A stretch of DNA of 64,000 nucleotides, taken from positions 806,001 through 870,000 of the forward strand of contig CM063290.1 in assembly GCA_032173965.1 (NCBI GenBank), given 5' to 3'. The notes under the pieces are model-generated. The model did no database searches. It saw only the letters and a list, made by a program, of their open reading frames with translations, and had not been told where the DNA came from. The translations under genes were made by a program, and so were the position numbers. This document shows positions 591 through 64,000 of the stretch, piece after piece; position 1 is the stretch's first letter; every line of letters starts with the position of its first letter. This DNA is from Sitta carolinensis (taxonomy: Eukaryota; Chordata; Aves; Passeriformes; Sittidae).

Positions 591-26123
<25,533 letters not shown>

Positions 26124-27390
26124 CAGACTGCAGACCCCACATCTCAAGGAGCTTTCCAGGAAAAGAGACCTTTCCAGCTGATTTTGGGAAGGGGAGGAGG
26201 GAAGAAAACAGAGGGGAATATGCTAGAGACACGGCTGTAGCCCTTGGTAAACATGCAAACCCGAATCATCACCCATCACAGCACCGAAGAAGGCCTGAGG
26301 CAGTGCTGGGCTGCCTCTCCCACAGCTCCTAACTCACCTGGCAGTGCACAGCCACACTTCACCTGTACTTTACCCCTGCCCCCATGGCCAGAGGCTTTTT
26401 GGATTCAAGGTAAAGTGGCAAAGTAGAACACCTGGTTTCCCCCCAGCCAGTGAATGCAGATTTCTGATCAGGGGGAGGAAGGAAGTTCTCAGTAACACAC
26501 ATTTTAGCCACCACAACACGACAGAGAGACAACAGCTTATATCCCAGTGTCACACTTTGTACCCTCTGCTGTTACGGGAAATCTGTCCTACCAAATGTTT
26601 TAATTTTTACTTGAAACCATTTATACAAGAGGAGTCCAAAGACCTGCTGTACTTCAGTACCTTCTCACTAATTACTCCAGAGTGTATTACCTGAAGTCCC
26701 TATTTACAAGTTAATTTACAGCTTTCCAGACCAACTGAAGTTGTAGGTAATTTATTAATTTCTGTACCTATAATATGTAAGATTGTGATCAAAGACCCTT
26801 TCACCATTTTCTAAGCTTTTTCTTGCTTTCTCTAAAGTTGCTCTTTTCTAAAGTTTCTAGTAATGTATAAATCATAGTTTTTATATTTAAATCTTGAGCT
26901 ACACTTTTGACTTGAAGTATTGTAACATATCAGTGGCTGCATAGAACTGGGAAATTGGAGTAAGGGATGGTATCAGGCAATAAGATAAAGCCTACAAAAC
27001 TGAGTTCTCCAATGGAGGGCACAAACTTTGAAGTTTTTAGGCTGACTCTGTCAGTGCTTAGGCTCTGATCCTGCACATAACTTGTACGTGTTCTGATCAA
27101 TGTCAGTCCTCACATCAGGAAAGCTGCACAGCTGATTGCAAGAGTCTGAAGGAGCTTTAAGTAAGAGGGTAAAAGGCTTTAAATCTGCAATGATATGTAT
27201 TAAACATTCTTATGCAGATTGCAAAGGAACTTACTGCTTTGTTTATCAAAGCAAAGACATTTCCAAATCAAGTACCAGATACCTCAGATGACTGCTACAA
27301 TAGGTCTATTTAAAAACCTATGTCCTTTTAGCTTTCTGAGTTTGTCATCTGATCAAAACGTTTTGATAATAAACTGAAATTATGAGCCAA
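26124..27390 (+). other. MME: Probable MME 3' untranslated region
   Basis: This is AT-rich sequence with no exon-like open frame after the MME stop. The best polyadenylation candidates are ATTAAA at 27199-27204 and AATAAA at 27368-27373, the latter just before a switch to very GC-rich sequence. The end point is an inference from these signals only. Confidence 0.45.
27368..27373 (+). terminator. MME: Candidate MME polyadenylation signal AATAAA
   Basis: A canonical AATAAA lies 1.25 kb after the stop codon, with ATTAAA 170 bp upstream as an alternative. The local sequence is AT-rich and gives way to a CpG-rich block about 100 bp further on. No transcript data are available to choose between them. 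Confidence 0.4.
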
Positions 27391-27479
27391 ATGCAGTGTG
27401 TGTTCTTCACAGGAACCATGAAAATACAAAAGAAAAAATTCTCTGCAAATCAATGTCTGTGCTTGCCCCCGAGCCCCTC

Positions 27480-27760
27480 AGCTCAGAAAACACAGCCCGC
27501 AACAAACAACTCCCTCTGGCAGCTCCCGCGCAGGAGCGAGCCCCAGCAGAGAGGGGAAACCCAGAGCTGCTCTATTTCACACAGAAACCAAGGGTTCGCA
27601 CAGAACAAGGACCCAAAGCCGCCTGCAGCTCTCGCAGGGAGCTGGAAGGGGCTGCGGACCGAGGGAGAGCGCAGACGGACGGGCACTGCCCAGGGGAGGG
27701 GCGGCTGCCGGCGCTGCGGGCCGCGCGGCTCCGCCCGGGCTCCTACCTCAGCGGCACGGC
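27480..27760. other. CpG-rich segment 3' of MME
   Basis: GC-rich sequence with frequent CG dinucleotides, a GC-box-like ggggaggggcggctg near 27690 and a cgcgcggctccgcccggg run begins about 100 bp past the last candidate MME polyadenylation signal. It merges into the 30-bp array. On the minus strand gctgag|gtagga at about 27750 resembles a splice donor. It may be a promoter, but no transcript is proven. Confidence 0.45.
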
Positions 27761-29140
27761 GGCTCCGGGTTCCTCCGGGACAGGGCTAGGGGCTCCGGCT
27801 TCCTCCAGGTCCGGGTTCGGGGCTCCGGGTCGTTCCTGAGCCGGGCTGGGGGCTCCGGGTCCTTCCTGAGCCGGGCTCAGGGCTTCAAGTCCCCTCAGAT
27901 CCAGGCTCGGGGCTCCGGGTCCCCTCATGTCCGGGCTCGGGGCTCCGGGTTCCTCCAGAGCCGGGTTCAGGGCTCCAAGTCCCCTCAGATCCGAGTTCAG
28001 GGCTCCAAGTCCCCTCAGGTCTGGGTTCGGGTCTCCCAAGTCCCCTCAGATCCGAGTTCAGGGCTCCAAGTCCCCTCAGGTCTGGGTTCAGGGCTCCAAG
28101 TCCCCTCAGGTCCAGGTTCAGGGCTCCAAGTCCCCTCAGATCCGAATTCAGGGCTCCAAGTTCCCTCAGGTCCGGGCTCGGGGCTCCAAGTCCCCTCAGA
28201 TCCGAGTTCAGGGCTCCAAGTCCCCTCAGGTCCGGGCTCGGGGCTCCAAGTCCCCTCAGATCCGAGTTCAGGGCTCCAAGTCCCCTCAGGTCCGGGCTCG
28301 GGGATCTGGGTCCTTCCTGAGCCGGGCTCAGGGCTCTGGGTTCCTCCAGAGCCAGGTTCAGGGCTCCAAGTCTTCTCAGGTCCGGGCTCAGGGCTCCAAG
28401 TCCCCTCAGGTCCGGGTTCAGGGCTCCAGGCCCCTCCAAGTCCCCTCAGGTCCGAGGTTCAGGGCTCCAGGCCCCTCAGGTCCGGGATTCGGGGCTCCAG
28501 ACCCCTCAGGTCTGGGATTCGGGGCTCCAGACCCCTACAGATCCGGGGTTCGTGGCTCCAGACCCCTCAGGTCCGGGTTCGTGGCTCCAGACCCCTCAGA
28601 TCCGGGGTTCGGGGCTCCAGACCCCTCAGATCCGGGGTTCGGGGCTCCAGACCCTCAGGTCCGGGATTCGGGGCTCCAGGCCCCTCAGGTCTGGGATTCG
28701 GGGCTCCAGGCCCCTACAGATCCGGGGTTCGTGGCTCCAGGCCCCTCAGGTCCGGGGTTCGTGGCTCCAGGCCCCTCAGGATCCGGTGTTCGGGGCTCCA
28801 GGCCCCTCAGATCCGGTGTTCGGGGCTCCAGACCCTCAGGTCCGGGGTTCGGGGCTCCAGGCCCCTCAGGTCCGGGGTTCGTGGCTCCAGGCCCCTCAGA
28901 TCCGGTGTTCGGGCTCCAGGCCCCTCAGATCCGGTGTTCGGGGCTCCAGGCCCCTCAGATCCGGTGTTCGGGGCTCCAGACCCCTCAGGTCCGGGGTTCG
29001 GGGCTCCAGCCCCTCAGGTCCGGGGTTCGTGGCTCCAGGCCCCCAGATCCGGTGTTCGGGCTCCAGCCCCTCAGATCCGGTGTTCGGGGCTCCAGGCCCC
29101 TCAGGTCCGGGGTTCGTGGCTCCAGGCCCCTCCGCGTCCC
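27760..29140. repeat. 30-bp CpG-rich minisatellite array, about 45 copies
   Basis: The unit is close to tccgggttcggggctccaag followed by tcccctcagg, with a 30-bp step (27961, 27991 and so on). Two subfamilies follow one another: an aagtcccctcag type to about 28430, then a caggcccctcag/cagacccctcag type. Because 30 is a multiple of three, the array stays open in several frames on both strands, giving 10-residue repeats such as GSKSPQVRVQ (+) and DLRGLGALNP (-). That is expected of such an array and is not evidence of a gene. Confidence 0.96.
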
Positions 29141-29233
29141 CCCGGATTCGGGGTCGGGCCCCGGCGCTCCTGAGGGCGAGTGCGAGAGCGCCCCCCTGCG
29201 GCCCGCCCTCCCCGCGGGGCGCCCCTGGCGGAC

Positions 29234-29395
29234 AGAACCGGCACCGGACCGGATCGGACCGGATCGGACTGAACCGGACCGGATCGGACCGGACCGAACC
29301 GACACCGACATTGGCAGCGGACCGAACGGGCACCGGAGCGGATCGGAGCGGACCGCACTGAAGCGGGACCGACGCCGGGACCCGGACCGGCACCC
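29234..29395. repeat. Decamer-type ACCGGATCGG repeat
   Basis: About 160 bp of accggatcgg-like repeats degenerates into gagcggaccg and gaccgacgccgg forms. It is extremely CpG-dense and directly follows the 30-bp array, with a short unique CpG-rich spacer between. Confidence 0.9.
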
Positions 29396-29545
29396 GCCGC
29401 GCGGGTGTTCCCTTTGCCCCTCGGCCCCGAGCAAGGCGGGCCCTCAGCCCCGCGGGGGGCGCGGGGTGCGCACCGGGGTGGGCGCAGGGGAGCGAGCTGT
29501 GCGAGGGTGCGGGGCTGGCAGGTGAGCCCCTTCCCCGGGCTGCTG
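29396..29545 (+). promoter_or_regulatory. CpG-island-like segment with a consensus splice donor
   Basis: Unique GC-rich sequence (gcggggggcgcggggtgcgc and similar) ends in gggctggcag|gtgagc, with the cut after 29521. A CpG-dense segment followed by a textbook donor on the plus strand is what a non-coding first exon looks like. No initiator element or downstream exon could be identified, so this is only a candidate. Confidence 0.3.
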
Positions 29546-29629
29546 CACGCAGGAGGCGGGCAGTGGGTGGGCAAAGCGCCCTGGAGCCGCCGTGCTTGGC
29601 GTGGGACTGGGAACATCCCAGCCCGGACT

Positions 29630-30428
29630 GCTTCACAGGCAGGTGTGCTCCCTGTCCCAGCCCAGACTCTGCTTCACAGGCAGGTGTGCTCCCTGTCCCA
29701 GCCCAGACTCTGCTTCACAGGCAGGTGTGCTCCCTGTCCCAGCCCAGACTCTGCTTCACAGGCAGGTGTGCTCCCTGTCCCAGCCCAGACTCTGCTTCAC
29801 AGGCAGGTGTGCTCCCTGTCCCAGCCCAGACTCTGGTTCACAGGCAGGTGTGCCCCTGTCCCAGCCCAGACTCTGGTTCACAGGCAGGTGTGCTCCCTGT
29901 CCCAGCCCAGACTCTGGTTCACAGGCAGGTGTGCTCCCTGTCCCAGCCCAGACTGGTTCACAGGCAGGTGTGCTCCCTGTCCCAGCCCAGACTCTGCTTC
30001 ACAGGCAGGTGGCTCCCTGTCCCAGCCCAGACCTGCTTCACAGGCAGGTGTGCTCCCTGTCCCAGCCCAGACTCTGGTTCACAGGCAGTGTGTGCTCCCT
30101 GTCCCAGCCCAGACTCTGCTTCACAGGCAGGTGTGCTCCCTGTCCCAGCCCAGACTCTGGTTCACAGGCAGGTGTGCTCCCTGTCCCAGCCCAGACTCTG
30201 CTTCACAGGCAGGTGTGCTCCCTGTCCCAGCCCAGACTCTGGTTCACAGGCAGGTGTGCTCCCTGTCCCAGCCCAGACTCTGCTTCACAGGCAGGTGTGC
30301 TCCCTGTCCCAGCCCAGACTCTGCTTCACAGGCAGGTGTGCTCCCTGTCCCAGCCCAGACTCTGGTTCACAGGCAGGTGTGCTCCCTGTCCCAGCCCAGA
30401 CTCTGGTTCACAGGCAGGTGTGCTCCTC
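29630..30428. repeat. 41-bp minisatellite array, about 19 copies
   Basis: The unit begins ttcacaggcaggtgtgctcc and continues ctgtcccagcccagactctg, then c or g. The step is 41 bp (29641 to 29682). Copies alternate irregularly between a ctctgcttcaca and a ctctggttcaca form, and some have one- to three-base deletions (about 29850, 29950 and 30010). Three overlapping open frames cross it, one per reading frame, as expected when the unit length is not a multiple of three. Confidence 0.97.
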
Positions 30429-32581
30429 TCTGCTCTGCTCTGCACCAGTCATGCTCTGTGCACCCCAACACCCCTACATGGGATTTCGAGCATTAAAGAA
30501 TACAAACATGAGTCTGGAAGTTTCCAGGATGCCACATGCAGCATCCCAGGACAGGGGCACAGACACTCCTCTCTACTCGTTTTGCTCCAAGAGCTGTTCA
30601 GGGAAAGCCAGGCAGAGGCTGTGGGCAAGCTTGGCATCATAGTGTAACAAAATTGTCATGGCCTGATTCTGAAGTTATCACCTTGCTCACCAGCATTCTT
30701 CAAGAAATCTGAATGTGCATGGGTTTTTTCCCCTCAATCACCAGCACCTCTCTGAGAGAAAAGAACCTGGCTCTCAAATACTCATTCTCTTTTTCAGGAA
30801 TGAAAAACCCCAAAGCTTTTGCTACCCGTTTACTCCCGCATGTAAGGAGACAGACCCGAGTGGGTTGTCTGAAGGTGGTTACAAAAGGTCACTCTGCAGA
30901 GTGCTCAGTGATCTTCCAACAGCGTGGGGGATGCATATTTTCTTGGAATAATCCTCTCTTTATTACCCCATAAAACTGGCAGAAACTTCTGCTTCGTATA
31001 CAGCAATCAGCTCAACGATATTGACGCCAACCTAGAAAGTTATTTTGGTTTGCTCTGCCAAATCAGATTTCAAAAATCAGGTAAAGCTAAACCAGATTGT
31101 AGTGTTTACATTTTCTCTCAGTAACATTTTAATTGGAAACATTCGATTTCCAGCGTTGTGAGACACCCAGAGAGCTGTTTGGGCCCGTGGGCCCCTTCAG
31201 AACTCTTTCCCTCTGTGCCTGGTAAATGAAGTGAGTTGTGAAAACACAGAGGTGGTCACTGTGCAGTCCTGGCTGGATCAGTGTGGGTGGGCTCAGCCAC
31301 GGAGGAACCGAAGGTGAGACCCCGAGGTGTGGCTCAGGGTGGGCTGCCCCGAGCCAGCCCTTGCAGGGGCTGCTCCCACCTGCAGGGCCTGCACAGCAGC
31401 CTCGGGGAGCTCCGGGGTTTAGCCCCTCTCTTTCAGGACATCTGACGAGAGTGGATCTTCCCTGTGCCCTCAGCTGATTCCCAGGTGAAGAAACCCGGTG
31501 TTCAGCCAATTCCCAACCGGAATGTCACACTTCAGTGCTCCTGCTGACTGCTGGAGTGGCCCAGGAATGTTCACGGCTGCACTACGGTCAAATCTATTTG
31601 TGTTTCCATTCCTAAAGCTCAACAGACAGTGCCCACAGATGGAGACAGGATGTCTGACTGTCCTCACATTCTCAAAATTGTACAAATTGAATGAGCAGGA
31701 CTCAAAAAAATAGTTTCTTTCTCTATTTAAGCTCATCAGGGGTCATTAAGAATATTTTCACATTCCCTTAAACATACATCTTGCTGGGATCTTCCAGACA
31801 TGCCTTTCACAATCAATTCTCTGCGTTAACTGAATTATTAATGATTTCATCCTCTCAGAACTGCAGTTCTTCAGTAGAAAAACCTTCATGCCCAAAATCC
31901 CAAAGCTGTCAGTGAAAATGCAGTGATCTGATGCTCAGTTGTGAGTTCTAAGTGGCAAACTCACTGGAAGTTCACATGGCTCATTATTGACTGGGGAATA
32001 TAATTATCTCCAATTATAATTAAAAAGGCAAAGCCCCCAGTCCAGGACACTGCGGGCCCCCGGTGAGCCTGAGATTCAGACACACTCAGCTGCACAACCC
32101 TCCCAGCCTGAACAAGCCTGAGGTTTTCTTTTCGATGGACAAAAGTTTCTGTTTCATAACAATAGAGTCCAAGAGATTTTCCCCATAATAAAGCTAAAAA
32201 TACTTGCCCAGGCCCCATGAGAAATGAACCCTTGTCTGCTTCAAGCAAGCTTGAAGTTCCTTAGCTGGTAGTAGCTATTTTAAAAGTTTGCTGTTTAACA
32301 AGCAGGCAGGTATCTGACCTACCACGAGATTCTGAAAACCACCCCTCAACTGCAAATAATCTGAGAACAGGGAAATTGGTTTGGAGATTCTTACTAATGG
32401 ATAAAAAGTGTGCACAGCATTTACATTGTCGATATTAAAAATAACTCACTTTATACCTATTTTAGTAATTAGAAATCTAAATTGAAATTCCGTGTTCTTC
32501 TCATCAACATCGTTTTGGGTTCTTCTGACCTGTAAGACAGAAAATTCCATTTAAAAAGGTGGCAATGCCAAGCAGGGAGCT
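30429..32581. other. Intergenic sequence between MME and STRIT1
   Basis: Mostly unique sequence with AT-rich and GC-rich stretches. No exon-like frame with splice borders, no RNA gene and no clear transposon was recognised. Part of it may be STRIT1 3' untranslated region or a non-coding third STRIT1 exon. TTTATT at 30959-30964 would read AATAAA on the minus strand, but it is too far from the coding exon to assign. Confidence 0.4.
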
Positions 32582-32727
32582 TGGTGTGTGACACCAGCAG
32601 GGGAGGCTGGTGTGTGGACACTGCCCTCACTGCTCACTGAGGCTCTGTGTGACACTGCCATCCCCTCGGGGCTCTGTGTGACACTGCCATCCCCTCGGGG
32701 CTCTGTGTGACACTGCCCTCACTGCAG
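32582..32727. repeat. Short 29-bp tandem repeat next to STRIT1 exon 2
   Basis: Three clear 29-bp units of ggctctgtgtgacactgcca plus tcccctcgg start at 32641, 32670 and 32699, preceded by degenerate copies from about 32582. It lies 55 bp beyond the STRIT1 stop, on the 3' untranslated side. Confidence 0.85.
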
Positions 32728-32781
32728 GCTGTCCCCATCACTCACCGCAGGTGCCGCGGGTCGCTGCCGCCGCTCGGTGCC

Positions 32782-32876
32782 TCAGGAGAAGACGATGTAG
32801 ACCATGAGGGCACAGCCCAGGATCCAGCCGAGTGCCAGCAGCACGGGCACGAGCAGGCGGGACAGCGGGGCCTGGG
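32782..32876 (-). CDS. STRIT1: STRIT1 coding exon 2 (transmembrane helix and stop)
   Basis: Coding part 95 nt. The acceptor is ccctgtccctgtgccag ending at 32877 on the minus strand. A second AG four bases further in would break the frame set by exon 1. It encodes LLVPVLLALGWILGCALMVY and then IVFS, a strongly hydrophobic helix. Codons are very GC-rich at third positions, unlike the AT-rich flanks. Confidence 0.93.
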
Positions 32877-34382
32877 CTGGCACAGGGACAGGGACAGGGT
32901 CAGGGACACGGCAGGGAGCCCTGGAGGAGCCCAGCAGTGCCCGGGGGATGCCCAGGGTGGCTGGGATGGCCCGGGCTGCTCAGAGGAGCCCAGGGCAGCC
33001 CAAGGTGGAGCACACGGCAAGCAGGACTGGCTTTACACAAACACATCACACAACACATAATTCTGAAGACCCTTCTCTGTTTCCTGCAAACAGCACACTC
33101 TTGCCAGAAAGCAGAATAACAACCTTTGAGATCCTAATACTTATCAATATATCACAACCTCTTACAACACATCTTTACACAGTTAATAGAATTACAGGTT
33201 TTTGAAGGGAATAATGAATCCTATAAAACTACTCACAACACCTTGCACAGTTTAGATCAAGCAGGCAGATTCAGAGGGATAGTTAATAATTTAGGGATTG
33301 CCACACTGTTCTTCTAAAGCTCTGCACAGCAAACTGTCTCACCATGACACTGCACAGTGTGTCTGCCAGAGGGACAGCAGATCTGCATGTGCTGCCATGA
33401 AAATATTAAACACATAAACAACCACACAGGAAAAGCACCCTGCCCTGACGCCGGGGGTCCCTCAGCTGTTTCCTGCAGGGGCTGTTTCTGCCCTGACGCC
33501 GTGTCAGGGGTGGTTCCCCTGCCCCTGCCGTGTCCCTGCAGGTCTCAGCACACGCAGGGCTGCATCCTGCTGGGGGCACAGAGGGAGCTGTGCTCTCAGA
33601 GCTCTGCTGCTGCCTCTGGGGCTTTGTCAGGGGAGCTCCACCTTAAACCAGCACGTGCAGAATTTCTGGCTATCAAGGAAAACTCAACTAGTTTGAGTCC
33701 TTTCCTACCTTAGCAGAAACTCACTCTCCCTAGATACCAGAGTCAGTGGTGCAAAAAAAACAGGAGATAAGTCTAAAAGTTTTGAACCTAGGTATGAAGA
33801 TGTATTAGAAAGTTGCCTTTACAAGTGCTACCTGAGTAACTGTGCACACAGCACACACCACAGCTACAGCTGTAAATTTAAGTGAAATAAATAAAAAATT
33901 TCAATAGATACAAAATTCATTTTTATAAACTGCCTTTTCTCCTTGGAGAGAGTGAAGTGTGCTTACAATGGAAAGGTCATTATTAAAATTTCATTCTGCT
34001 CTGCCTCGAGCTTCGTGGGTTTAGTCTAAATTATTCTGTGTTCATTTGGCACTACACTTGGAGCTCAGCTACACACAGTATAACAAAAATGCTGTCAAAC
34101 GTAACTCATTTTACACATTGTCCTATTATGTCAGCTAATTTGGAATGACAACTACAAAAAATAAACAAAACAAACCTGGTAGGATTCAAAAATACAGGAG
34201 GAACCCAAGCTGTTAATAGAATTAGCTTTTCAAGCGATTACACGTTCCTACTGAAAAGTAAAATATATATGGTGTACCAGACAAGAACACGGGTAGCTGA
34301 GTATATTCACACTGCATTGCTCAGATCTATTAATTTCAGTATATCATTGCATTCAATTGTGCCTCTTACCTGGTTCTGCCAT
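32782..34382 (-). CDS. STRIT1: STRIT1 (DWORF), 35-residue SERCA-activating micropeptide, two coding exons
   Basis: DWORF is a single-pass micropeptide of the muscle sarcoplasmic reticulum. It binds the calcium pump SERCA and raises its activity, opposing phospholamban and sarcolipin. Exon 1 (34382 down to 34370) gives ATG and four codons with one spare base. Exon 2 (32876 down to 32782) completes the codon and runs to TGA at 32784-32782. The spliced frame is 35 codons: MAEPAQAPLS, then RLLVPVLLALGWILGCALMV, then YIVFS. It aligns without gaps to human DWORF (35 residues), sharing MAE, LLVP, the GWI-GC core and the YxVFS end, with the helix-kinking proline at residue 15. The ATG has G at -3 and +4, and an in-frame TAA lies five codons upstream (34400-34398). 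The gene lies between MME and PLCH1 on the minus strand, as in mammals. It is too short for routine gene finders. Confidence 0.93.
32877..34369 (-). other. STRIT1: STRIT1 intron
   Basis: An intron of about 1.5 kb with donor gtaagag and acceptor ccag. It is mostly AT-rich unique sequence, with a GC-richer stretch near 33430-33650. No other exon or repeat was recognised. Confidence 0.75.
34370..34382 (-). CDS. STRIT1: STRIT1 coding exon 1 (MAEP)
   Basis: The 13 coding bases atggcagaaccag are followed by donor gtaagag. The first three residues MAE match mammalian DWORF, where the first exon also encodes only the first four residues. The phase (one base left over) fits exon 2 exactly. The untranslated leader probably begins 30-50 bp upstream, judged from the TATA-like element. 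Confidence 0.88.
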
Positions 34383-34450
34383 TCCCTCTCTGCTAGTTTA
34401 ATGGCAGGTTTGGGTTTGCCTCTGCAGTTGCTCTGAGAGCCCTGGGATGC

Positions 34451-34486
34451 TTTAAATAGAGCAATATTTGGAATGTGCTGCAGCTG
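34451..34486 (-). promoter_or_regulatory. STRIT1: Putative STRIT1 muscle promoter motif cluster
   Basis: Read on the minus strand towards exon 1: E-box CAGCTG (34486-34481), MCAT/TEAD motif CATTCC (34475-34470), CArG-like CCAAATATTG (34471-34462, one mismatch to CC(A/T)6GG), and TCTATTTAAA (34460-34451), which resembles both a TATA box and a MEF2 site. The last is about 70 bp from the ATG. The motifs are seen directly. Their role is inferred from the known muscle expression of DWORF. Confidence 0.5.
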
Positions 34487-37400
34487 CCTGGCTCGCTGGT
34501 GCCAGGGGTTGGCTATAAGCATTCAATTGTCTACAAAGGCAGGAATTCAGGGGTTCAAGGTTACCTCTGCCTGCTCCTCCAACTGCACCTCTGTTGCAGA
34601 GCAATCGACTGCAGAGGGAGGCAGACAGGGAGGAAAGTGCTTTGTGGTCTCTTTACGGCAGGGAAGCCCCCATGGTAAAGGCAGGGGACTCATGAGCAGC
34701 CCTGCACGGCCAGCCAGGGCTCTGGTGTGTTGGGAGAGCCCCTCTCCTCTCCCAGCCCGCCCTGCTGAGGGGCCCAGGGCAGGTGTCCTGCAGGCAGCAG
34801 CTCTGCTGGGCCCCACCAGCTCTCCCAGGACGGGCTGCTCTGCAGGGACCCTGCACAGGGCAGAGCAGGGGGCAGGAACGTGCCAGCCCCTCCCCAGGCA
34901 CCCCCAAGGAAGGGGATTTCCTTACTGCTTCTGCAAAATGGGAGCAATCTTACAATAAAACTCAGGGCTGTGTAGCACTTTATTATGCCATGCACAGTTC
35001 AGCCTATCACAACATTTTGAGACACGAGAATAAACCACCAGCTTCACTTTCTTTGGCTTTGCTATAAAGCAAATCCTTTTGGGATAAGATCCAATTTGTT
35101 GTGAAAAGAAATATGACTCTGTGTAAAATATTTATGGAAAAAATATCTCTGATACAATAACTTCATTGGCCGCACAGCTGTTCCTGTAAGAATCCTATCT
35201 GGTTTGGTTCTGCTAATTATATCTATCCATCTGATCTCATGGAAATAATTTCCAGCAGGAATCATGTATTCCTGACAAGACCATCTGACCTTCAGGGATT
35301 GGGATCCTTCCAGGCCCAGTTGCCACAAGCAAGGGCAGCGAGTCATTGCTGCTCCCAGAGCTGGGGAACTGCTGCCCCAGGGAGTGCTGTCCTGCACGTC
35401 CAAAGCTGGACTTAAAGGAGATCAAAGCTGTAACTGCAGCAAAGAAGAGAGTAACAATATAGACATTATTTTAAACAACACATCTTCTGTTGGGAACTGA
35501 GGAATGAACTGCAGACATCAATTCTACAATAGACCTCAGTCCAACAGCCAAAAATAAAATAAAAAAGGCAGAGGGACAGTTTCAAAATATAAAAACAAGG
35601 AGAGGACACAAGGCTTAAGAAAATACTCAGAATGATCTGTGGCAAAACGCATCTACAGCTTTGCTGCTGAAGAACAATACACAAGAAGAACAATTCCCTC
35701 ATTTCTATTTGTGTTCCCAGTTACGTGACCTTGTTTCATGTTTTCCCCTCTCTGTTGTGCTGGGACACTCAATATCCAGAGTTACACTTGGATGGGCAGT
35801 TGGGCTCAGAAACGAGATTCCTTTTAGCCTCCAGCTCTCTGGGGTGCTCAAACAGATTGGTCTCAGGGCAACCTTTGGGGCAGCCTCTGGGACTTCGTTC
35901 CCATTGACTGCTTGAAGCTGGAGATCACTTCAAATGCTTTACATGTCTGCAGTGCTTTAAGGGAACTGGGGCCAAAATTAGGGTAAGGCAGCAGGGCTGC
36001 AAGGCTTTCTGTGAGAGAAATGATTTTAAAGGGAAAAATCCTTTTGGTGCCTGGTGTTTGGGCAGGAACTGTCAGAACCTCACTGACCAAAGCAAATTGG
36101 CCATTTTTAGGGTTAGAGTACCTAATATGTTTTGAGCACATTCCAGTCTTCATCACTGCATCAGTAGCCAGAAATGAAATACTGGAATGTCACATTTTTT
36201 TGTTACTGTACTTGTAACCTCTGGGAATCTGCACCCACATGCAGGAGGCTGGCAAAGAAACACTTTGTTTTACAAATTCTATATGATCCCTATAAATAAC
36301 TGCAGCCTACACTGCTTTAGAGGAGATTACAAGGACAGACCAACTCATCTTCACAAAGGGAATGCTCCAAGTAATAAAAGCTTTATAGCTTTGTAATACT
36401 GATATTAATTTTTAAATCACATTTCTTTCAATTGATCTTTTTCCTTTAAGAAAAAACCTTGATTTACTAGCATATCAAAAGCCAAGATTATATGCCTTGA
36501 ATTATTTTATGGCTTTCCCATACTCTCTTGTGACCTGCAGACTAACATACGAGAATATCAGATTATTGCATTCACAAAAGAGGTTTATGTGTGGAAAATC
36601 TGTCTAATGAAATGCATTTTATTAGTCACACCAATCTCAGTATTTGAAAGCTCCCTTAACAAACTGTAGAAGTAGACATTACTTCTACTCACATTTACAT
36701 CATGAAAATAAAGACTGATTTATTTGATAACTATGCAACCGGAGACCTGAAAAAAATCCATGTATTAAGCTACTAAATAATTAATTCCACACGCTGCTTC
36801 CTAGGGCTCTGGTCTCCACATCATTTCTGCTGGCAGAGAGAGGCACCACTCAGCTGAGTGCTGAGATACCTGCAGAAGGCAGCTGCAGCTGTGCGGGGAC
36901 AGCCCCGTGGTGTGAGAGCTCAGTGAGCTGTGCCATTCCCGGCTCGGGCCCCGGGGACTGGGAACAGCAGCGGTACCGAGGAGGGCTGGAGGTGGATTTG
37001 CCTCGGGACAGCTCCTGGCAGCTGAGCGATGGCAAATTCCTCCGGAGCTGGCCCACGGCGTGGCCCCAGCTCCCTGACTGCCCAGCAGCTGCTGGCTGCC
37101 TGGGGCCCTGCAGGAGGCTGCGAGGTGGGAGCAGCAGCAGGAGCTCGGCAGAGCCCGGGGGTGGCAGCAGCTGGACGGAGCCCAGGGTCCCCAGCACAGG
37201 AACCACATGCCCTGAGCTGGCACTGAGCCCCCAGGGACAGCCCAGCTCAGGGGCAGCCTCAGGACAGGTTTCAGGTTCTCCATGTACGGACTTCACCCAT
37301 TGCTTCCTGTCCTGTGATTTTTGTTCTGGAAGGGACCCAGCCCTTCACACACCATCGATACCCAGGGGTTACGATTTGAGAATGGCAGCTTTCTGGAGGA

Positions 37401-42488: not shown

Positions 42489-44266
42489 GAGGGACAGGAC
42501 ACAGGGAATGGCTCCCACTGTCAGAGGCAGGGCTAGGTGGGATACTGGGAAGGAATTGTTCTCCCTGGGGAAGAACAAGGGCAGCACAAAGCTCAACATT
42601 CAGAATTAGTCAAATCATGTCACAACCTCCAACGTGCCAACGCTCACGGCAACAACAGCATTAAAAAACCTCCTGAAAATACAGCAAAACAGTCTTAAAG
42701 GCCATTCCCTGGCCTTTGTCCTGTGCCTGACAGCTGTCCCCTGCCAGCTAGAGGGGGGGTGTGACACTGGCCCCTCCCAGGCAGCCCCGTGCCCTCCCAT
42801 GGGAACAATGCCCAGGCTCTGTGGCAGGGCTGCTCCCTTCCCTCAGTGCCAGGGCACCTGGGGCTGCTCTGGGCACTGAGCACTGGCACCATGCAAACTG
42901 CCAGGCTGCTTCATGTGCAGGCTATTTTCAGATGGTTGATTGTTAGTTTGCTGTCTGTACCACGTTACTGCTGCATTTCCCAGTGCAGTGCTCACCCCTG
43001 CCCCACTGCACCTTGCCCCCCAGCCATGAAGTTAGGCATATCTAATATATGGTATGTTCTATATTATATAGTGGTGTACATAGGAGATCACAGCTTTGGT
43101 CTCTTTGTGCTCAGCCCTAGGCTCTGACACTGGAATAAAAAACCTGTACAACAGAGATATTTCAAAGTATTATCCTCTGGCCTCTCCAAAGTAGTCAATA
43201 TGCTTTAAAATGTCAAATTAATTTTCTCCTACTGAAATTAACAGTTTTGGATGGTTGTTTCCAGGCCGATCAATAATACTGATAGAAGGAGCTGATTTTG
43301 GAGCTCTTCACTGACTTTAATGAACATTACAGGAGAGCCTGGGCCTTAAACCACAACTCTTTCAAATTCCCTCTGACAAATTATTGATTTCCTTGCTGTT
43401 CTGGCTGTGAGGAAGAGCTCTCCCTCCCATCCAGGTACATCCAACCAAGCTCCTGCCAGCTTTATCTCAGCACAGCAATATCCACCCCCAGCACAACACT
43501 GCATCCCATCCCTACAGTGACACAGGGAAGCCAACGATCCCATCACTTAACTCATCTTTAAATGCTGCACCTGGATATGCATTTTGAAATTTAGCATGAG
43601 ATAATATTAACAAATTCCCAGTATTGCATTTATCCCTGATTTAAAAAGCTTAAGATATATCTCTTTCTCCTTGTATAAACCAATTCAAGTTATATAATAG
43701 TATGTGGATTTACTTTGCCCCAGTTCCAGCTGGCAATATATTGTTAAGCCAAGGCTGTACAATTGCAATTTGGCAGAAAACAGGTCAGGGTTTTATTACA
43801 CATCAAAACTCTCAAACTGTTCTGAATGTTTCAAACTAAAAAGGCAAATAGAAAATAACCCTTGTGTCAGAATGATCCTATTCCATTACCTCGCTCATAA
43901 ATTTATATTGAGGACATTTTTACTGGTCCTTCTGCTGCTTTTCCACATCTGTCTGTGCAGTTGGCTGTGATGAACCCTGGGACAAAGTGAGGGTGGCAGT
44001 GCAGGGGTGCAGGGCAGGGGACACCTGAACCTGGCCGTGGGAATGGCCCCAGCTCAGACCTGCAGGGAAGGAAAGGCAGCGCCAGGGGAAGGAGCAGGGG
44101 GGCAAAGAATGGGGTGGAAAAGACCGTGCAGGTGGTGGGCTGAAGGTCTGGAGATCCTGGAGGGACACTGGGCTGTGACCCAGGGCATGAGGGACACTCA
44201 GGACAAGATTCATCTCTGAGCAGAGATCTCCCTGCTGACAGGGGACTCACTACTGTCCAGAGCCTC
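42489..44266. other. Intergenic sequence, no gene seen
   Basis: Unique sequence with an AT-rich centre (about 43020-43960). No coding exon, RNA gene or recognisable transposon was found. Confidence 0.4.
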
Positions 44267-45362
44267 CTTCAGCCCAGAGCTGTGCAGGGCACAGAGCCCT
44301 TCTCCTGCAGCCCAGAGCTGTGCAGGGCACAGAGCCCCCTCCCTGCAGCCCAGCTGTGCAGGCACAGAGCCCTCCCCTGCAGCCCCAGAGCTGTGCAGGG
44401 GCACAGAGCCCCCTCCCCTGCAGCCCCAGAGCTGTGCAGGGACACAGAGCCCCCTCCCCTGCAGCCCCAGAGCTGTGCAGGGACACAGAGCCCCTCCCTG
44501 CAGCCCCAGGTGTGCAGGACACAGAGCCCCCTCCCCTGCAGCCCGGGGCTGTGCAGGGACACAGAGCCCCCTCCCCTGCAGCCCCAGAGCTGTGCAGGGC
44601 ACAGAGCCCCCTCCCCTGCAGCCCCAGAGCTGTGCAGGGGCACAGAGCCCCCTCCCCTGCAGCCCCAGGGCTGTGCAGGGGCACAGAGCCCCCTCCCCTG
44701 CAGCCCCAGGGCTGTGCAGGGGCACAGAGCCCCCCTCAGCCAGGCTGTGCAGGGGCACAGAGCCCCCTCCCCTGCAGCCCCAGAGCTGTGCAGGCCAGAG
44801 CCCCCCCTGCAGCCCAAGCTGGCAGGCACAGAGCCCCTCCCCTGCAGCCCCAGAGCTGTGCAGGGGCACAGAGCCCCCTCCCCTGCAGCCCCAGAGCTGT
44901 GCAGGGGCACAGAGCCCCCTCCCCTGCAGCCCCAGAGCTGTGCAGGGACACAGAGCCCCCTCCCCTGCAGCCCCAGAGCTGTGCAGGGACACAGAGCCCT
45001 CCCCTGCAGCCGGGGCTGTGCAGGGGCACAGAGCCCCCTCCCCTGCACCGGGCTTGCGACACAGAGCCCTCCTGCACCGGCTGTGCAGGGCACAGAGCCC
45101 CCTCCCCTGCAGCCCCAGAGCTGTGCAGGGGCACAGAGCCCCCTCCCCTGCAGCCCCAGAGCTGTGCAGGGGCACAGAGCCCCCTCCCCTGCAGCCCCAG
45201 AGCTGTGCAGGGGCACAGAGCCCCTTCCCCTGCAGCCCAAGCTGTGCAGGGGCACAGAGCCCCCTTCCCTGCAGCCCCAGAGCTGTGCAGGGGCACAGAG
45301 CCCCTCCCTGCAGCCCCGGGGCTGTGCAGGGGCACAGAGCCCCCTCCCCTGCAGCCCCAGCC
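44267..45362. repeat. 41-bp C-rich minisatellite, about 26 copies
   Basis: The unit is cagccccagagctgtgcagg followed by ggcacagagccccctcccct and g, with a 41-bp step (44881 to 44922). Both ends and the centre (44730-44830, 45010-45090) have shortened copies with several-base deletions. Six frames are open across parts of it, including 350-460 codon frames on both strands, because the unit holds no stop triplets and its length is not a multiple of three. It is unrelated in sequence to the other 41-bp array at 29630. Confidence 0.97.
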
Positions 45363-51500: not shown

Positions 51501-51888
51501 GAAATTGAACGATCACTTTAGACAAACACATGTTTAACTGAAATAAGATTTTGACTATAAATGTCTAAGATGTGAAACGCTAAATTAAAGAATCCACTTT
51601 AAAGAGCTTGTAAGTTAAATTAGTGCTTGAAAACTCAGCACAAATTAATCATCTGCTTCCAGACATCTGTTTCCCTTAAAAATATGCTTCCTTAAGTCTA
51701 TTACTCCTTGAAATGGGATCACACAGATACAGTCTGACTGCACTGGCGAACGGCAGTCCCCCCAGCTGCACTTTAATTACCCATCCAAGCAATGCCTTGG
51801 AACAGGGGCGGGAGCAGAGCAGAGCTGATGGGAATCGCTGCCACACCCAGGCCTTGCAGAGCCTGCCCCAGAGCCCAGGGATGCTCCT
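48576..51888. other. Intergenic sequence, no gene seen
   Basis: Unique sequence between two minisatellites, moderately AT-rich after 49250. Short frames only, none with recognisable domains or paired splice sites. Confidence 0.4.
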
Positions 51889-53340
51889 GAGGGGACTGCA
51901 ATCCCCTCAGGCTGCTGCAGCAGAACCTGCTGCTCCTCACAGGACTGCAATCCCCTCAGGCTGCTGCAGCAGAACCTGCTGCTCCTGACGGGACTGCAAT
52001 CCCCTCAGGCTGCTGCAGCAGAACCTGCTGCTCCTGACGGGACTGCAATCCCCTCAGGCTGCTGCAGCAGAACCTGCTGCTCCTGACGGGACTGCAATCC
52101 CCTCAGGCTGCTGCAGCAGAACCTGCTGCTCCTGACGGGACTGCAATCCCCTCAGGCTGCTGCAGCAGAACCTGCTGCTCCTGACAGGACTGCAATCCCC
52201 TCAGGCTGCTGCAGCAGAACCTGCTGCTCCTGACAGGACTGCAATCCCCTCAGGCTGCTGCAGCAGAACCTGCTGCTCCTGACAGGACTGCAATCCCCTC
52301 AGGCTGCTGCAGCAGAACCTGCTGCTCCTGACGGGACTGCAATCCCCTCAGGCTGCTGCAGCAGAACCTGCTGCTCCTGACGGGACTGCAATCCCCTCAG
52401 GCTGCTGCAGCAGAACCTGCTGCTCCTGACGGGACCGCAATCCCCTCAGGCTGCTGCAGCAGAACCTGCTGCTCCTGACAGGACTGCAATCCCCTCAGGC
52501 TGCTGCAGCAGAACCTGCTGCTCCTGACAGGACTGCAATCCCCTCAGGCTGCTGCAGCAGAACCTGCTGCTCCTGAGGGGACTGCAATCCCCTCAGGCTG
52601 CTGCAGCAGAACCTGCTGCTCCTGACGGGACTGCAATCCCCTCAGGCTGCTGCAGCAGAACCTGCTGCTCCTGACGGGACTGCAATCCCCTCAGGCTGCT
52701 GCAGCAGAACCTGCTGCTCCTCACAGGACTGCAATCCCCTCAGGCTGCTGCAGCAGAACCTGCTGCTCCTGACGGGACTGCAATCCCCTCAGGCTGCTGC
52801 AGCAGAACCTGCTGCTCCTGACGGGACTGCAATCCCCTCAGGCTGCTGCAGCAGAACCTGCTGCTCCTGACGGGACTGCAATCCCCTCAGGCTGCTGCAG
52901 CAGAACCTGCTGCTCCTGACAGGACTGCAATCCCCTCAGGCTGCTGCAGCAGAACCTGCTGCTCCTGACGGGACTGCAATCCCCTCAGGCTGCTGCAGCA
53001 GAACCTGCTGCTCCTCACAGGACTGCAATCCCCTCAGGCTGCTGCAGCAGAACCTGCTGCTCCTGACGGGACTGCAATCCCCTCAGGCTGCTGCAGCAGA
53101 ACCTGCTGCTCCTGACAGGACTGCAATCCCCTCAGGCTGCTGCAGCAGAACCTGCTGCTCCTGACAGGACTGCAATCCCCTCAGGCTGCTGCAGCAGAAC
53201 CTGCTGCTCCTGAGGGGACTGCAATCCCCTCAGGCTGCTGCAGCAGAACCTGCTGCTCCTGACGGGACTGCAATCCCCTCAGGCTGCTGCAGCAGAACCT
53301 GCTGCTCCTGACAGGACTGCAATCCTCTCAGGGTGCTGCA
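51889..53340. repeat. 49-bp hairpin-forming minisatellite, about 29 copies
   Basis: The unit begins ggactgcaatcccctcaggc and continues tgctgcagcagaacctgctg and ctcctgacg, with an exact 49-bp step (51901 to 51950) and almost no length variation. Copies differ mainly at the join, ctgacggg, ctgacagg, ctcacagg or ctgagggg. Each unit holds the perfect palindrome ctgctgcagcag and the inverted repeat gcagcag-aac-ctgctgc, so each copy could fold into a hairpin. Divergent copies mark the right edge (about 53320-53370). Confidence 0.98.
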
Positions 53341-53544
53341 GCAGTGCCTGGCCCAGGCTCTGCAGGAACCTGCTGCTCCTCGTGCAGCCACACAGAGCAG
53401 TGGCCCAGCCAGGAGGTTCCTCAAGGAAGGAGGTCACAGCCCTCCCTCACAGGACTGTCCCACACCCCAGGTTTTGGGCTGTCAGACACCAGAGTCCCCA
53501 CCCCTGGTGTTACTGTGCAAGGCTGCATTCCCTGTGTGCTGAGA

Positions 53545-62300: not shown

Positions 62301-64000
62301 TGCCCTTCACCTATAACTTGTTTGTCTCCACCCCAGAAATTCTGTCTGGGAAGCAGAAATAATTTGTTAAAATACAAACATTTGATTCTATCAGATAACT
62401 TTATTACTTGGATGTTTTGCAAATTAGAAATTGCAAATTAGAAATCAATAACAGAAATCAAAACCAGACACCGATTCATTTATAATTATTTAATATTTTA
62501 CTGTCAGAAGAAGAAATCGCTTAGATTATCTTACCATTGTCGTCCACCACCCTGGTCTGATCTTTACAGCAGTCAACAGGTAACCCAATAATCTCCACCT
62601 CAACAAAGGGATCTATTATCTGTTTTTCAAAAACACAATATTTTAAAGGCAAGTCAGTCATACAAATGAAGGTGAATTTTGTAAGAATTAATGGAGAGAG
62701 TTGATTTAAATTCATGTGAGAATTCAAGCCCCTTTGAGTGACATGAATTTTCAAGCAGCACTATCATGGGTATTGGTTCCATGAAGTCTGTGTTGATGTA
62801 TGGTTTGCATCAAGAGCTATGGGCAGTTGTGACTAATTTTCATAGAAGTCCCCCTTTAAAATCCAAAACAAATCAGTTCTTAAACATCACGAGTAGGACA
62901 CAGGCTGGGGGAGGTGTAGTATTTAGTGACCAAAAGCTTGACAGTATCTGAAAGTTACTGGTGTGTTTGAATGGGGAGAAGGTTTGAGTCACACACTGCC
63001 ACGTCACTGCAGGAGCTGCCCTGAAGCACCTGCTGGGAGCTGAGCATCTCACCTCTCCTCTGTCCCCCAGCATGGAGTCAGGAGGCTTGGGCAGCTGCTG
63101 CCCACTGATGATCTTCAGAATAAGCTGCTTCTTAGGACTGGCAGGAAGTGGATCAGCAGAGTAGGGGTTGAAGGTGCCTGAAAGACGGCAAGCATGAGAG
63201 TGTAAGGAAAAAGAGACACATTATAAATACCACTCCCCAAGACACCACAGACAGACAAATTCGGCCAGAAATGAGCAACTGTGAGTAGGGAGCAGCTGCT
63301 CAGTTATTTTAAAATTCTCTTCCTGTTTCTTACAACCTTTTCTGGGTGGAGCAGTCCTTTTTTATGTGATTTCAAGGCAGAGCTGGACCAAGCCCTGGAT
63401 ACTTGCTCCTGGGCCACTGCAGAGCCTGTTCTATTTCCTGCAGCTGGTCATTCTAGGACCCCTTTTTCTTCTTTTAAACACATGTTAATAAGGCAAAGAC
63501 CTCAAAATATACATATAGGTATATGATCCCAGTAAGAGATTGCACACTGGTACAAGTCTAAGAGCTATGAGTGCATGGAAATACGAAAGATTCTTAATTT
63601 GCTTGCACTTTCCTTTCTTGTTCCTTTGCTGTGAAGGACACTTTGTGAAAGGCTTGGCAGCTGGAACCTTACCTTTGCACATCTGCTGAGGTTTGAGGAC
63701 ATAACCACAGTTGCCATTTACCCTGAATTTTGCTTCATTTAACTGCATCACACGTCCCTCAGACTGGTAGTTCAGGGCCACTGAAAGAGAGAAGTTGGGT
63801 GTCATTAATAAAGACAATTTTACTTGGCACCTGCACACCAAAAGGGAAGGAAGTCTTTCCTGCAGCTCCTACCTAACTGGCAGCCCACATTCCAGTAAGG
63901 AACAGGGTTGAAGTTGCTGGAGTCGATCCGGTAGGCTGAGGGATAGACCCTGGTCAGCTGCCTCTGGTTGTAAAGCATGAACTGCTCAGCCTTCTGCTGC
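57193..64000 (-). CDS. PLCH1: PLCH1 (phospholipase C eta-1), last eight exons, 5' partial
   Basis: PLC-eta enzymes hydrolyse PIP2 to diacylglycerol and IP3 and are unusually calcium-sensitive. They are mainly neuronal and neuroendocrine. The window holds the end of the catalytic Y box, the C2 domain and the long C-terminal tail. All phases agree: 63873-64000, 63673-63780, 63053-63177, 62535-62619, 61861-62007, 61413-61492, 60103-60463 and 57193-59330. Catalytic histidines (X box), the PH domain and EF hands lie beyond the right edge. PLCH1 rather than PLCH2 is chosen because the neighbours are MME and STRIT1. The two paralogues are similar in the C2 domain, so sequence alone is less decisive there. 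Confidence 0.95.
57890..58040 (-). repeat. PLCH1: 33-bp coding minisatellite in the PLCH1 tail
   Basis: The 33-bp unit begins ggctggctgcccgcgatccc and continues cgagggcacaggc. Three full units and two shortened units (18-21 bp) repeat GSQPPVP(A/S)G with the insert IA or TA. Every change keeps the frame, which supports real translation of this exon. Confidence 0.93.
60103..60463 (-). CDS. PLCH1: PLCH1 exon, start of the C-terminal tail
   Basis: The 361-nt exon follows acceptor tgtccctgcag and ends at donor gtaaga. It encodes [18 protein letters not shown], a basic segment [20 protein letters not shown] and later [19 protein letters not shown]. The [10 protein letters not shown] motif is shared with the tail of PLC-eta2 and has basophilic-kinase-like sites. 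The tail is otherwise predicted to be disordered. Confidence 0.93.
61413..61492 (-). CDS. PLCH1: PLCH1 exon, end of the C2 domain
   Basis: The 80-nt exon follows acceptor ctgtttccccag and ends at donor gtaggt in phase 0. It encodes [20 protein letters not shown] and then NETYGK. GYRHVYL and the SIFVH strand close the C2 fold. Confidence 0.96.
61861..62007 (-). CDS. PLCH1: PLCH1 exon, C2 domain ([10 protein letters not shown])
   Basis: The 147-nt exon follows acceptor tctgtgctgcag and ends at donor gtgagt. It encodes [40 protein letters not shown] and VAFSSLVP. The [11 protein letters not shown] loop carries acidic residues of the C2 calcium site. Confidence 0.97.
62535..62619 (-). CDS. PLCH1: PLCH1 exon, C2 domain
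   Basis: The 85-nt exon follows acceptor gtttttgaaaaacag and ends at donor gtaaga. It encodes [20 protein letters not shown] and then [15 protein letters not shown] and the following DDNG are hallmark C2 segments. Confidence 0.96.
63053..63177 (-). CDS. PLCH1: PLCH1 exon, linker and start of the C2 domain
   Basis: The 125-nt exon follows acceptor cgtctttcag and ends at donor gtgaga. It encodes [20 protein letters not shown] and then [29 protein letters not shown] is the first C2 strand of PLC enzymes. Confidence 0.96.
63673..63780 (-). CDS. PLCH1: PLCH1 exon, end of the Y domain
   Basis: The 108-nt exon follows acceptor ctctctttcag and ends at donor gtaagg. It encodes [20 protein letters not shown] and then [16 protein letters not shown]. 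The GCGYVLKP-type block closes the PLC catalytic barrel. Confidence 0.96.
63873..64000 (-). CDS. PLCH1: PLCH1 exon, Y-box part (cut by the window edge)
   Basis: It encodes [39 protein letters not shown] and CQL, the highly conserved end of the PLC Y domain (YPxxxRxDSSNFNP). It ends at donor gtagga with one base left over. The 5' border is outside the window. Confidence 0.96.

What the first reader, a model, noticed from the sequence alone, without database searches (positions are those of the whole stretch)
32782..34382. An avian DWORF (STRIT1) micropeptide gene hidden in two tiny exons
Joining 34382-34370 to 32876-32782 on the minus strand gives exactly 35 codons, the human DWORF length, with a gapless alignment by eye: MAE start, LLVP with proline at 15, GWI-GC core and YxVFS end. 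Exon structure, splice phase, Kozak context, an upstream in-frame stop and the MME/PLCH1 neighbourhood all agree. The longest uninterrupted piece is about 30 codons, so automatic annotation would probably miss it. A bird copy implies that SERCA activation by DWORF predates the bird-mammal split.
Basis: partly seen in the sequence, partly recalled or inferred. Interest (0 to 1): 0.93.

Follow-up and report, generated by a model that had tools for sequence, protein, structure and literature searches.

The report
Ordinary bird gene for DWORF peptide
This stretch of DNA, very likely from a songbird, carries in two exons predicted to be spliced together the code for DWORF, a 35-residue peptide that likely speeds the calcium pump of heart and slow muscle; the same gene is already on record for many birds, turtles and mammals, so it is real but ordinary.

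Summary
Joining 34382-34370 to 32876-32782 (minus strand) gives 35 codons and a stop, GT/AG intron ends, a gapless match to human DWORF (21 of 35 identical), and 54.4 bits against Pfam's DWORF model (cut-off 27). In the 1.03-Gb genome it is the only match over the cut-off. Neprilysin (MME) lies on one side, tail to tail, a phospholipase C gene on the other. Phospholamban, sarcolipin and likely SERCA pump genes are present elsewhere. So it is the single-copy orthologue of STRIT1/DWORF, predicted to activate SERCA. The two claims that made it interesting fail. It is not hidden: 23 bird protein clusters found here are already named DWORF, one (Chamaea) differing at 1 of 35 residues. It adds nothing on age: turtle and coelacanth records turned up, and a review states conservation from lamprey. 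One grain of truth remains: only 7 of the 23 bird records begin with the conserved MAE of the 13-base first coding exon, so automatic models may often miss that exon, or use another. Expression, splicing and pump activation are inferred, not shown.

The parts
34370..34382 (-). coding part of exon 1: ATG GCA GAA CCA G (MAEP plus first base of codon 5)
   Evidence: canonical donor GTAAGAGG follows
32877..34369 (-). intron 1 (1493 bases), GT...AG
   Evidence: splicing predicted, no transcript data here
32782..32876 (-). coding part of exon 2: rest of codon 5 to the stop TGA (31 of 35 residues, the whole hydrophobic helix)
   Evidence: the only match over the Pfam DWORF cut-off in the genome
34398..34400 (-). 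in-frame TAA 18 bases upstream of the ATG
34444..34475 (-). likely muscle promoter elements: CATTCC (MCAT-like) at 34475-34470 and CTATTTAAAG (MEF2-like/TATA-like) at 34459-34450; ten residues of the swift (Apus apus) DWORF model match 34473-34444 exactly
   Evidence: motif names recalled, function inferred
34565..34652 (-). possible alternative first exon, weakly similar (E 0.023) to the N-terminus of the pintail (Anas acuta) 70-residue model; same splice phase, but here an in-frame TAA and no ATG precede it, so it could only be non-coding
32746..32781 (-). predicted 3' untranslated remainder of exon 2, if the donor GTGAGTG at 32745 is used; a matching acceptor would open exon 3 at 32529
   Evidence: prediction only
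19346..19471 (+). neprilysin (MME) exon with the HEITH zinc site
   Evidence: a 36-residue stretch matches neprilysin chain 4xbh_A at E 6e-17, 33 of 36 identical
20817..20834 (+). neprilysin exon core GENIAD, within GINTLGENIADNGGVRQAYK
26109..26123 (+). end of neprilysin: CRVW and stop, tail to tail with DWORF
63686..63781 (-). phospholipase C Y-domain exon (PLCH1 by position and recall)
63874..64000 (-). phospholipase C Y-domain exon, running out of the window

Best explanation
The minus strand carries the single-copy orthologue of STRIT1, whose two coding exons are predicted to be spliced into the 35-residue membrane peptide DWORF, a likely activator of the muscle calcium pump SERCA. Inferred working: a heart and slow-muscle transcript starts just upstream of 34400; exon 1 gives MAEP, exon 2 gives a short amphipathic stretch, the Pro15 kink and one transmembrane helix with Gly21-x-x-x-Gly25; in the sarcoplasmic reticulum membrane the peptide would sit in the groove of SERCA that phospholamban and sarcolipin also use, displace them and raise turnover. 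The sequence, its family membership, its uniqueness in the genome and its neighbours are shown here; transcription, splicing, translation, location and activation are inferred from mammalian DWORF.
For: Exact 35-codon join with canonical splice ends, upstream in-frame stop and strong start context. Full-length gapless match to human DWORF and to the Pfam DWORF model at twice the cut-off. Only match over the cut-off in 1.03 Gb. Named DWORF records with the same MAEP start and 35-residue length in other birds, e.g. Chamaea fasciata 34 of 35 identical. Residues singled out in the review, Leu12, Pro15, Gly21 and Gly25, are all present; Pro15 is kept in 65 of 66 relatives counted from the C-terminus, and in the 66th (P0065, a partial record lacking the last residue) once it is read in register. 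Turtle (4 of 5) and mammal (27 of 31) records share the MAE start. MME and a phospholipase C flank it. Likely partners exist in the genome: phospholamban, one match over the cut-off of 3; sarcolipin, 1 match, over the cut-off; 11 of 13 matches to the SERCA-type ATPase model fall on three contigs, C21, C24 and C213.
Against: No transcript, ribosome or protein data were available. 16 of 23 named bird clusters start otherwise than MAE, so use of this exon 1 in birds is not universal in the records; the swift record in those 16 does contain an internal MAE. Lys4 of the human peptide is Pro here, so the N-terminal charge differs. No AATAAA was found in the 1782 bases after the stop (only ATTAAA at 31133), so the 3' end is not located. 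In one search no single match passed the whole-protein cut-off of the pump model, and only 13 of 123 candidates were scored.
Confidence: 0.95

Rival explanations
1. The exon 2 peptide is real DWORF, but in this bird the working mRNA uses another first exon, so the N-terminus is not MAEP.
For: 16 of 23 named bird clusters have other N-termini; a stretch at 34652-34566 resembles the pintail model's N-terminus, weakly (E 0.023), with the same splice phase; the start of the Pipra model resembles 38862-38830 (E 0.047, with a stop inside).
Against: In this window the pintail-like exon has an in-frame stop and no ATG. MAEP is found in songbird (Chamaea, Oenanthe), manakin, falcon, woodpecker and stork records and MAE in most of the turtle and mammal records. 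Three further records (P0009, P0010, P0032) appear to run straight through the intron-side sequence next to exon 2, which looks like modelling or unspliced sequence rather than a true first exon.
Confidence: 0.08
2. The locus is a decayed or unexpressed copy of DWORF.
For: No expression data here.
Against: Open frame, canonical splice sites and start, and the residues invariant across the 23 bird records are intact; it is the only copy found in the genome and keeps its intron and neighbours.
Confidence: 0.02
3. Chance resemblance of a short hydrophobic frame.
For: Short hydrophobic helices give weak matches, e.g. a PsbY chain at E 0.13 and five sub-threshold genome matches at E 0.29 to 6.4.
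Against: Genome-wide E 1.0e-8 for exon 2 alone, Pfam 54.4 bits for the joined frame, near-identical named bird records, neighbours as expected.
Confidence: 0.001

Closest known systems
DWORF / STRIT1 (Pfam PF22030), bird records such as Chamaea fasciata P0003 and Oenanthe melanoleuca P0007
   Same: 35 residues, MAEP start, near-identical transmembrane core; Chamaea differs at one residue of 35 (Q6P)
   Different: nothing of substance
Human DWORF (PDB 7mpa)
   Same: length, gapless alignment, MAE start, LLVP with Pro15, GWIxGC, YxVFS; 21 of 35 identical
   Different: Pro4 instead of Lys4; residues 6-9 QAPL instead of GSTF. The mammalian 34/35-residue pair differs by an alanine at the exon 2 boundary (PMC12233064, passages); here the next downstream AG is 5 bases away and shifts the frame, so that particular 34-residue form is not available
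Phospholamban and sarcolipin (PF04272, PF05366)
   Same: single-helix SERCA regulators of muscle (recalled; PMC8396278, passages)
   Different: separate genes in this genome (C7 and C1); inhibitors, with Asn where DWORF has Pro15 (PMC13368986); the window peptide matches only the DWORF model

Membership tests
DWORF / STRIT1 | match to the curated family model over its cut-off | tested here: met
   54.4 bits against 27, model positions 1-35 of 35
DWORF / STRIT1 | 34-35 residues, single transmembrane helix at the C-terminal side | tested here: met
   35 residues; hydrophobic run from residue 12 on, judged by eye, aligned gaplessly to 7mpa_A
DWORF / STRIT1 | Pro15, Leu12 and Gly21-x3-Gly25 | tested here: met
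   all present; importance from PMC13368986 section 8
DWORF / STRIT1 | two coding exons, first four codons in exon 1 | tested here: met
   13 + 95 bases, intron phase 1, GT/AG; mammalian exon 2 boundary at residue 5 per PMC12233064 (passages); the mammalian exon count itself is recalled
DWORF / STRIT1 | neighbours MME and PLCH1 | tested here: met
   MME by sequence; phospholipase C Y domain on the other side; the name PLCH1 and the human gene order are recalled
DWORF / STRIT1 | expression in heart ventricle and slow skeletal muscle | not testable with these tools
   no RNA data
DWORF / STRIT1 | binds SERCA and raises its activity | not testable with these tools
   needs a biochemical assay; likely pump genes are present
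Phospholamban or sarcolipin | match to PF04272 or PF05366 | tested here: not met
   not listed at E up to 10, with HMMER's filters on

The most novel reading that the evidence does not exclude
The tail-to-tail pair MME-DWORF is a functional gene pair: neprilysin attacks the SERCA inhibitors phospholamban and sarcolipin but spares DWORF (reported in PMC13344947), DWORF displaces phospholamban, and the two genes, with stop codons 6.7 kb apart here, have stayed together since before birds and mammals parted because they are co-regulated to release the pump.
Probability: 0.04. Interest if true: 0.6.

Novelty: already known. Interest (0 to 1): 0.14.

Why it matters
It matters little as a discovery: DWORF is a described, curated family already named in many bird records. 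It is useful as a clean example of a 13-base first coding exon: in 16 of the 23 named bird clusters seen here the record does not start at the conserved MAE, so bird DWORF N-termini in databases deserve checking before anyone compares N-terminal function or raises antibodies.

Tried and rejected
Considered and rejected: chance hydrophobic frame; retrocopy (intron kept, single copy, neighbours kept); a phospholamban or sarcolipin relative. I looked for the alternative first exons of other bird models in the window. The N-termini of P0002, P0004 and P0008 gave no convincing place; the start of P0006 (Pipra) met 38862-38830 at E 0.047 with a stop inside. The swift model's upstream part matched next to exon 1 (34473-34384, E 2.3e-4), the pintail model's weakly at 34652-34566 (E 0.023), and ten residues of the owl model at 35175-35146 only at E 0.33. 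One search took 18 of the 66 records, and its output was cut, so some rows for P0020 and P0021 were not seen. Rfam at gathering thresholds found nothing in the window. A Pfam scan of three other open frames near the phospholipase C exons found nothing at E up to 0.01 (3 of the 5 frames). The second genome match (C3, E 4.1) was not examined.

Literature: the search returned unrelated bird papers; two searches listed 15 of 27 and 10 of 13 papers, none with a bird DWORF in its title or start of abstract; passages of PMC8203291, PMC8396278, PMC12673850 and PMC8818594 added nothing on birds, and PMC6202051 held none of the terms sought. The original description (Nelson 2016, PMC4892890) is not held, so its conservation figure was not seen; the lamprey statement is taken from the review PMC13368986. 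PMC6886504 (one passage) lists STRIT1 among genes first found by PhyloCSF. The chicken Ribo-seq paper PMC13220464, which mentions DWORF once, was not opened. No structure was predicted, since a solved chain covers the whole peptide. dN/dS was not computed: no DNA of other birds was at hand.

Full report
What was checked. The intron starts GTAAGAGG and ends CCTGTCCCTGTCCCTGTGCCAG. An in-frame TAA lies 18 bases upstream of the ATG, the start context has G at -3 and +4, and 30 of 35 third codon positions are G or C.

What it is. Against solved structures, the peptide matches DWORF (7mpa_A) over its full length without a gap, E 1.4e-10; the only other match at E up to 10 is a PsbY chain at 0.13. 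Identity is 21 of 35. Against Pfam-A at E up to 10 it matches one family, DWORF (PF22030), 54.4 bits with a curated cut-off of 27. The window lies in an unnamed 1.03-Gb genome; searched with the DWORF model in six frames, six matches came up at E up to 10 and only this exon 2 passed the cut-off (E 1.0e-8; the next 0.29). The same model rang, under its cut-off, in 2 of 14 control genomes. With the peptide itself, two matches came up, this one and a weak one at E 4.1 that I did not examine. The 13-base first coding exon is too short to score; a pattern of the MAE codons followed by a donor, written after seeing the exon, occurs once in the window, here, against a mean of 0.01 in 100 shuffles.

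Neighbours. A neprilysin exon with the HEITH site lies at 19346-19471 on the plus strand; the best matches of a 36-residue stretch among solved chains are neprilysins (33 of 36 identical to 4xbh_A), ahead of endothelin-converting enzyme. Two more neprilysin pieces, including the C-terminal CRVW and its stop at 26121-26123, match neprilysin chains (the C-terminal piece alone is weak, 13.1 bits, and was part of a two-piece query). The stop codons of MME and DWORF are 6,658 bases apart, tail to tail. On the other side, phospholipase C Y-domain exons lie at 63686-63781 and from 63874 on the minus strand. That this is PLCH1, and that the human genes have the same order, is recalled.

What animal. 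The keratin family PF02422 (typical of feathers, recalled) gave 150 matches, all that were scored out of 212 candidates. With a near-identical songbird DWORF record this makes a songbird very likely; no call named the species.

Is it new? No. A search with exon 2 returned 7 proteins at E up to 10, six of them named DWORF in birds (Chamaea, Chiroxiphia, Manacus twice, Pipra, Oenanthe) and one unnamed. Chamaea differs at one residue of 35. A profile search returned 66 proteins at E up to 1; by the names shown I sorted them into 23 bird, 31 mammal, 5 turtle, 1 coelacanth and 6 unnamed clusters. A review states conservation from lamprey to mammals (PMC13368986, section 8 read). So the bird gene is on record, and its age beyond the bird-mammal split was already known. 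Literature searches for DWORF with chicken (21 papers listed), STRIT1 (28 papers) and DWORF with lamprey (4 papers) showed, in the listings and in the passages I opened, no paper on a bird DWORF; most of those papers were not opened, and this concerns print in this library, not the sequence databases.

What remains of the annotation point. Only 7 of 23 named bird clusters start with MAE, against 4 of 5 turtle and 27 of 31 mammal clusters. The swift record runs, in frame, from upstream sequence into an internal MAE, and that upstream part matches the window just before exon 1 (34473-34384, E 2.3e-4), so the swift seems to have the same exon 1. Other records appear to read through the intron edge or to use other exons. 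In the window a pintail-like alternative first exon would have the right phase but an in-frame stop and no ATG. I take this as a sign that automatic models often miss the 13-base exon; true alternative promoters in other birds are not excluded.

How it likely works. Residues singled out in the review (Leu12, Pro15, Gly21, Gly25) are present. Pro15 is kept in 65 of 66 relatives counted from the C-terminus, and the exception, a partial record, has it too when read in register. Gly21 is Ala in the fox, dog and elephant records. Phospholamban and sarcolipin are present in the genome. The SERCA-type pump model gave 13 matches at E up to 1e-20, 11 of them on three contigs (C21, C24, C213) and one each on C30 and C1; no single match passed the whole-protein cut-off, as expected for genes split into exons, and 13 of 123 candidates were scored. 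By analogy with mammals the peptide would displace the inhibitors and raise pump turnover (starts of the abstracts of PMC8203291 and PMC6202051). None of this was tested here.

Bold reading. A preprint reports that neprilysin weakens binding of phospholamban and sarcolipin to SERCA but leaves DWORF unaffected (PMC13344947, passages); an earlier paper's title says that neprilysins cleave SERCA-inhibitory micropeptides (PMC9338278, listing and passages). Its gene is the neighbour of DWORF. A search for DWORF, neprilysin and MME together listed one paper, PMC13344947, and its text holds none of the terms locus, neighbour, chromosome and synten-. The linkage is most likely plain inherited gene order; the functional-pair idea is untested.

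Noticed in passing
26124-32781: MME (neprilysin) and DWORF lie tail to tail with 6,658 bases between stop codons; neprilysin is reported to act on SERCA inhibitors and spare DWORF.
   Followed up: partly
34444-34473: Ten residues' worth of sequence here (FQILLYLKHP) is matched exactly in the swift DWORF model, around MEF2-like and MCAT-like motifs: a likely conserved promoter read as protein in that record.
   Followed up: partly
15242-16632, 27753-29133, 29616-30426, 44263-45360, 51882-53344: Large minisatellite arrays (units 80, 30-90, 41, 41 and 49 bases), several of which carry long open frames that are likely spurious.
   Followed up: no
32641-32717: A perfect 29-base repeat, 2.7 copies, just downstream of the DWORF stop, inside a predicted 3' intron.
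   Followed up: no
P0012, P0013, P0027 (owl and two parrot records): By eye their long N-terminal extensions share a stretch like VREE(A/T)xLKKA, which could be a real alternative first exon in those birds; that stretch had no convincing match in the window.
   Followed up: partly
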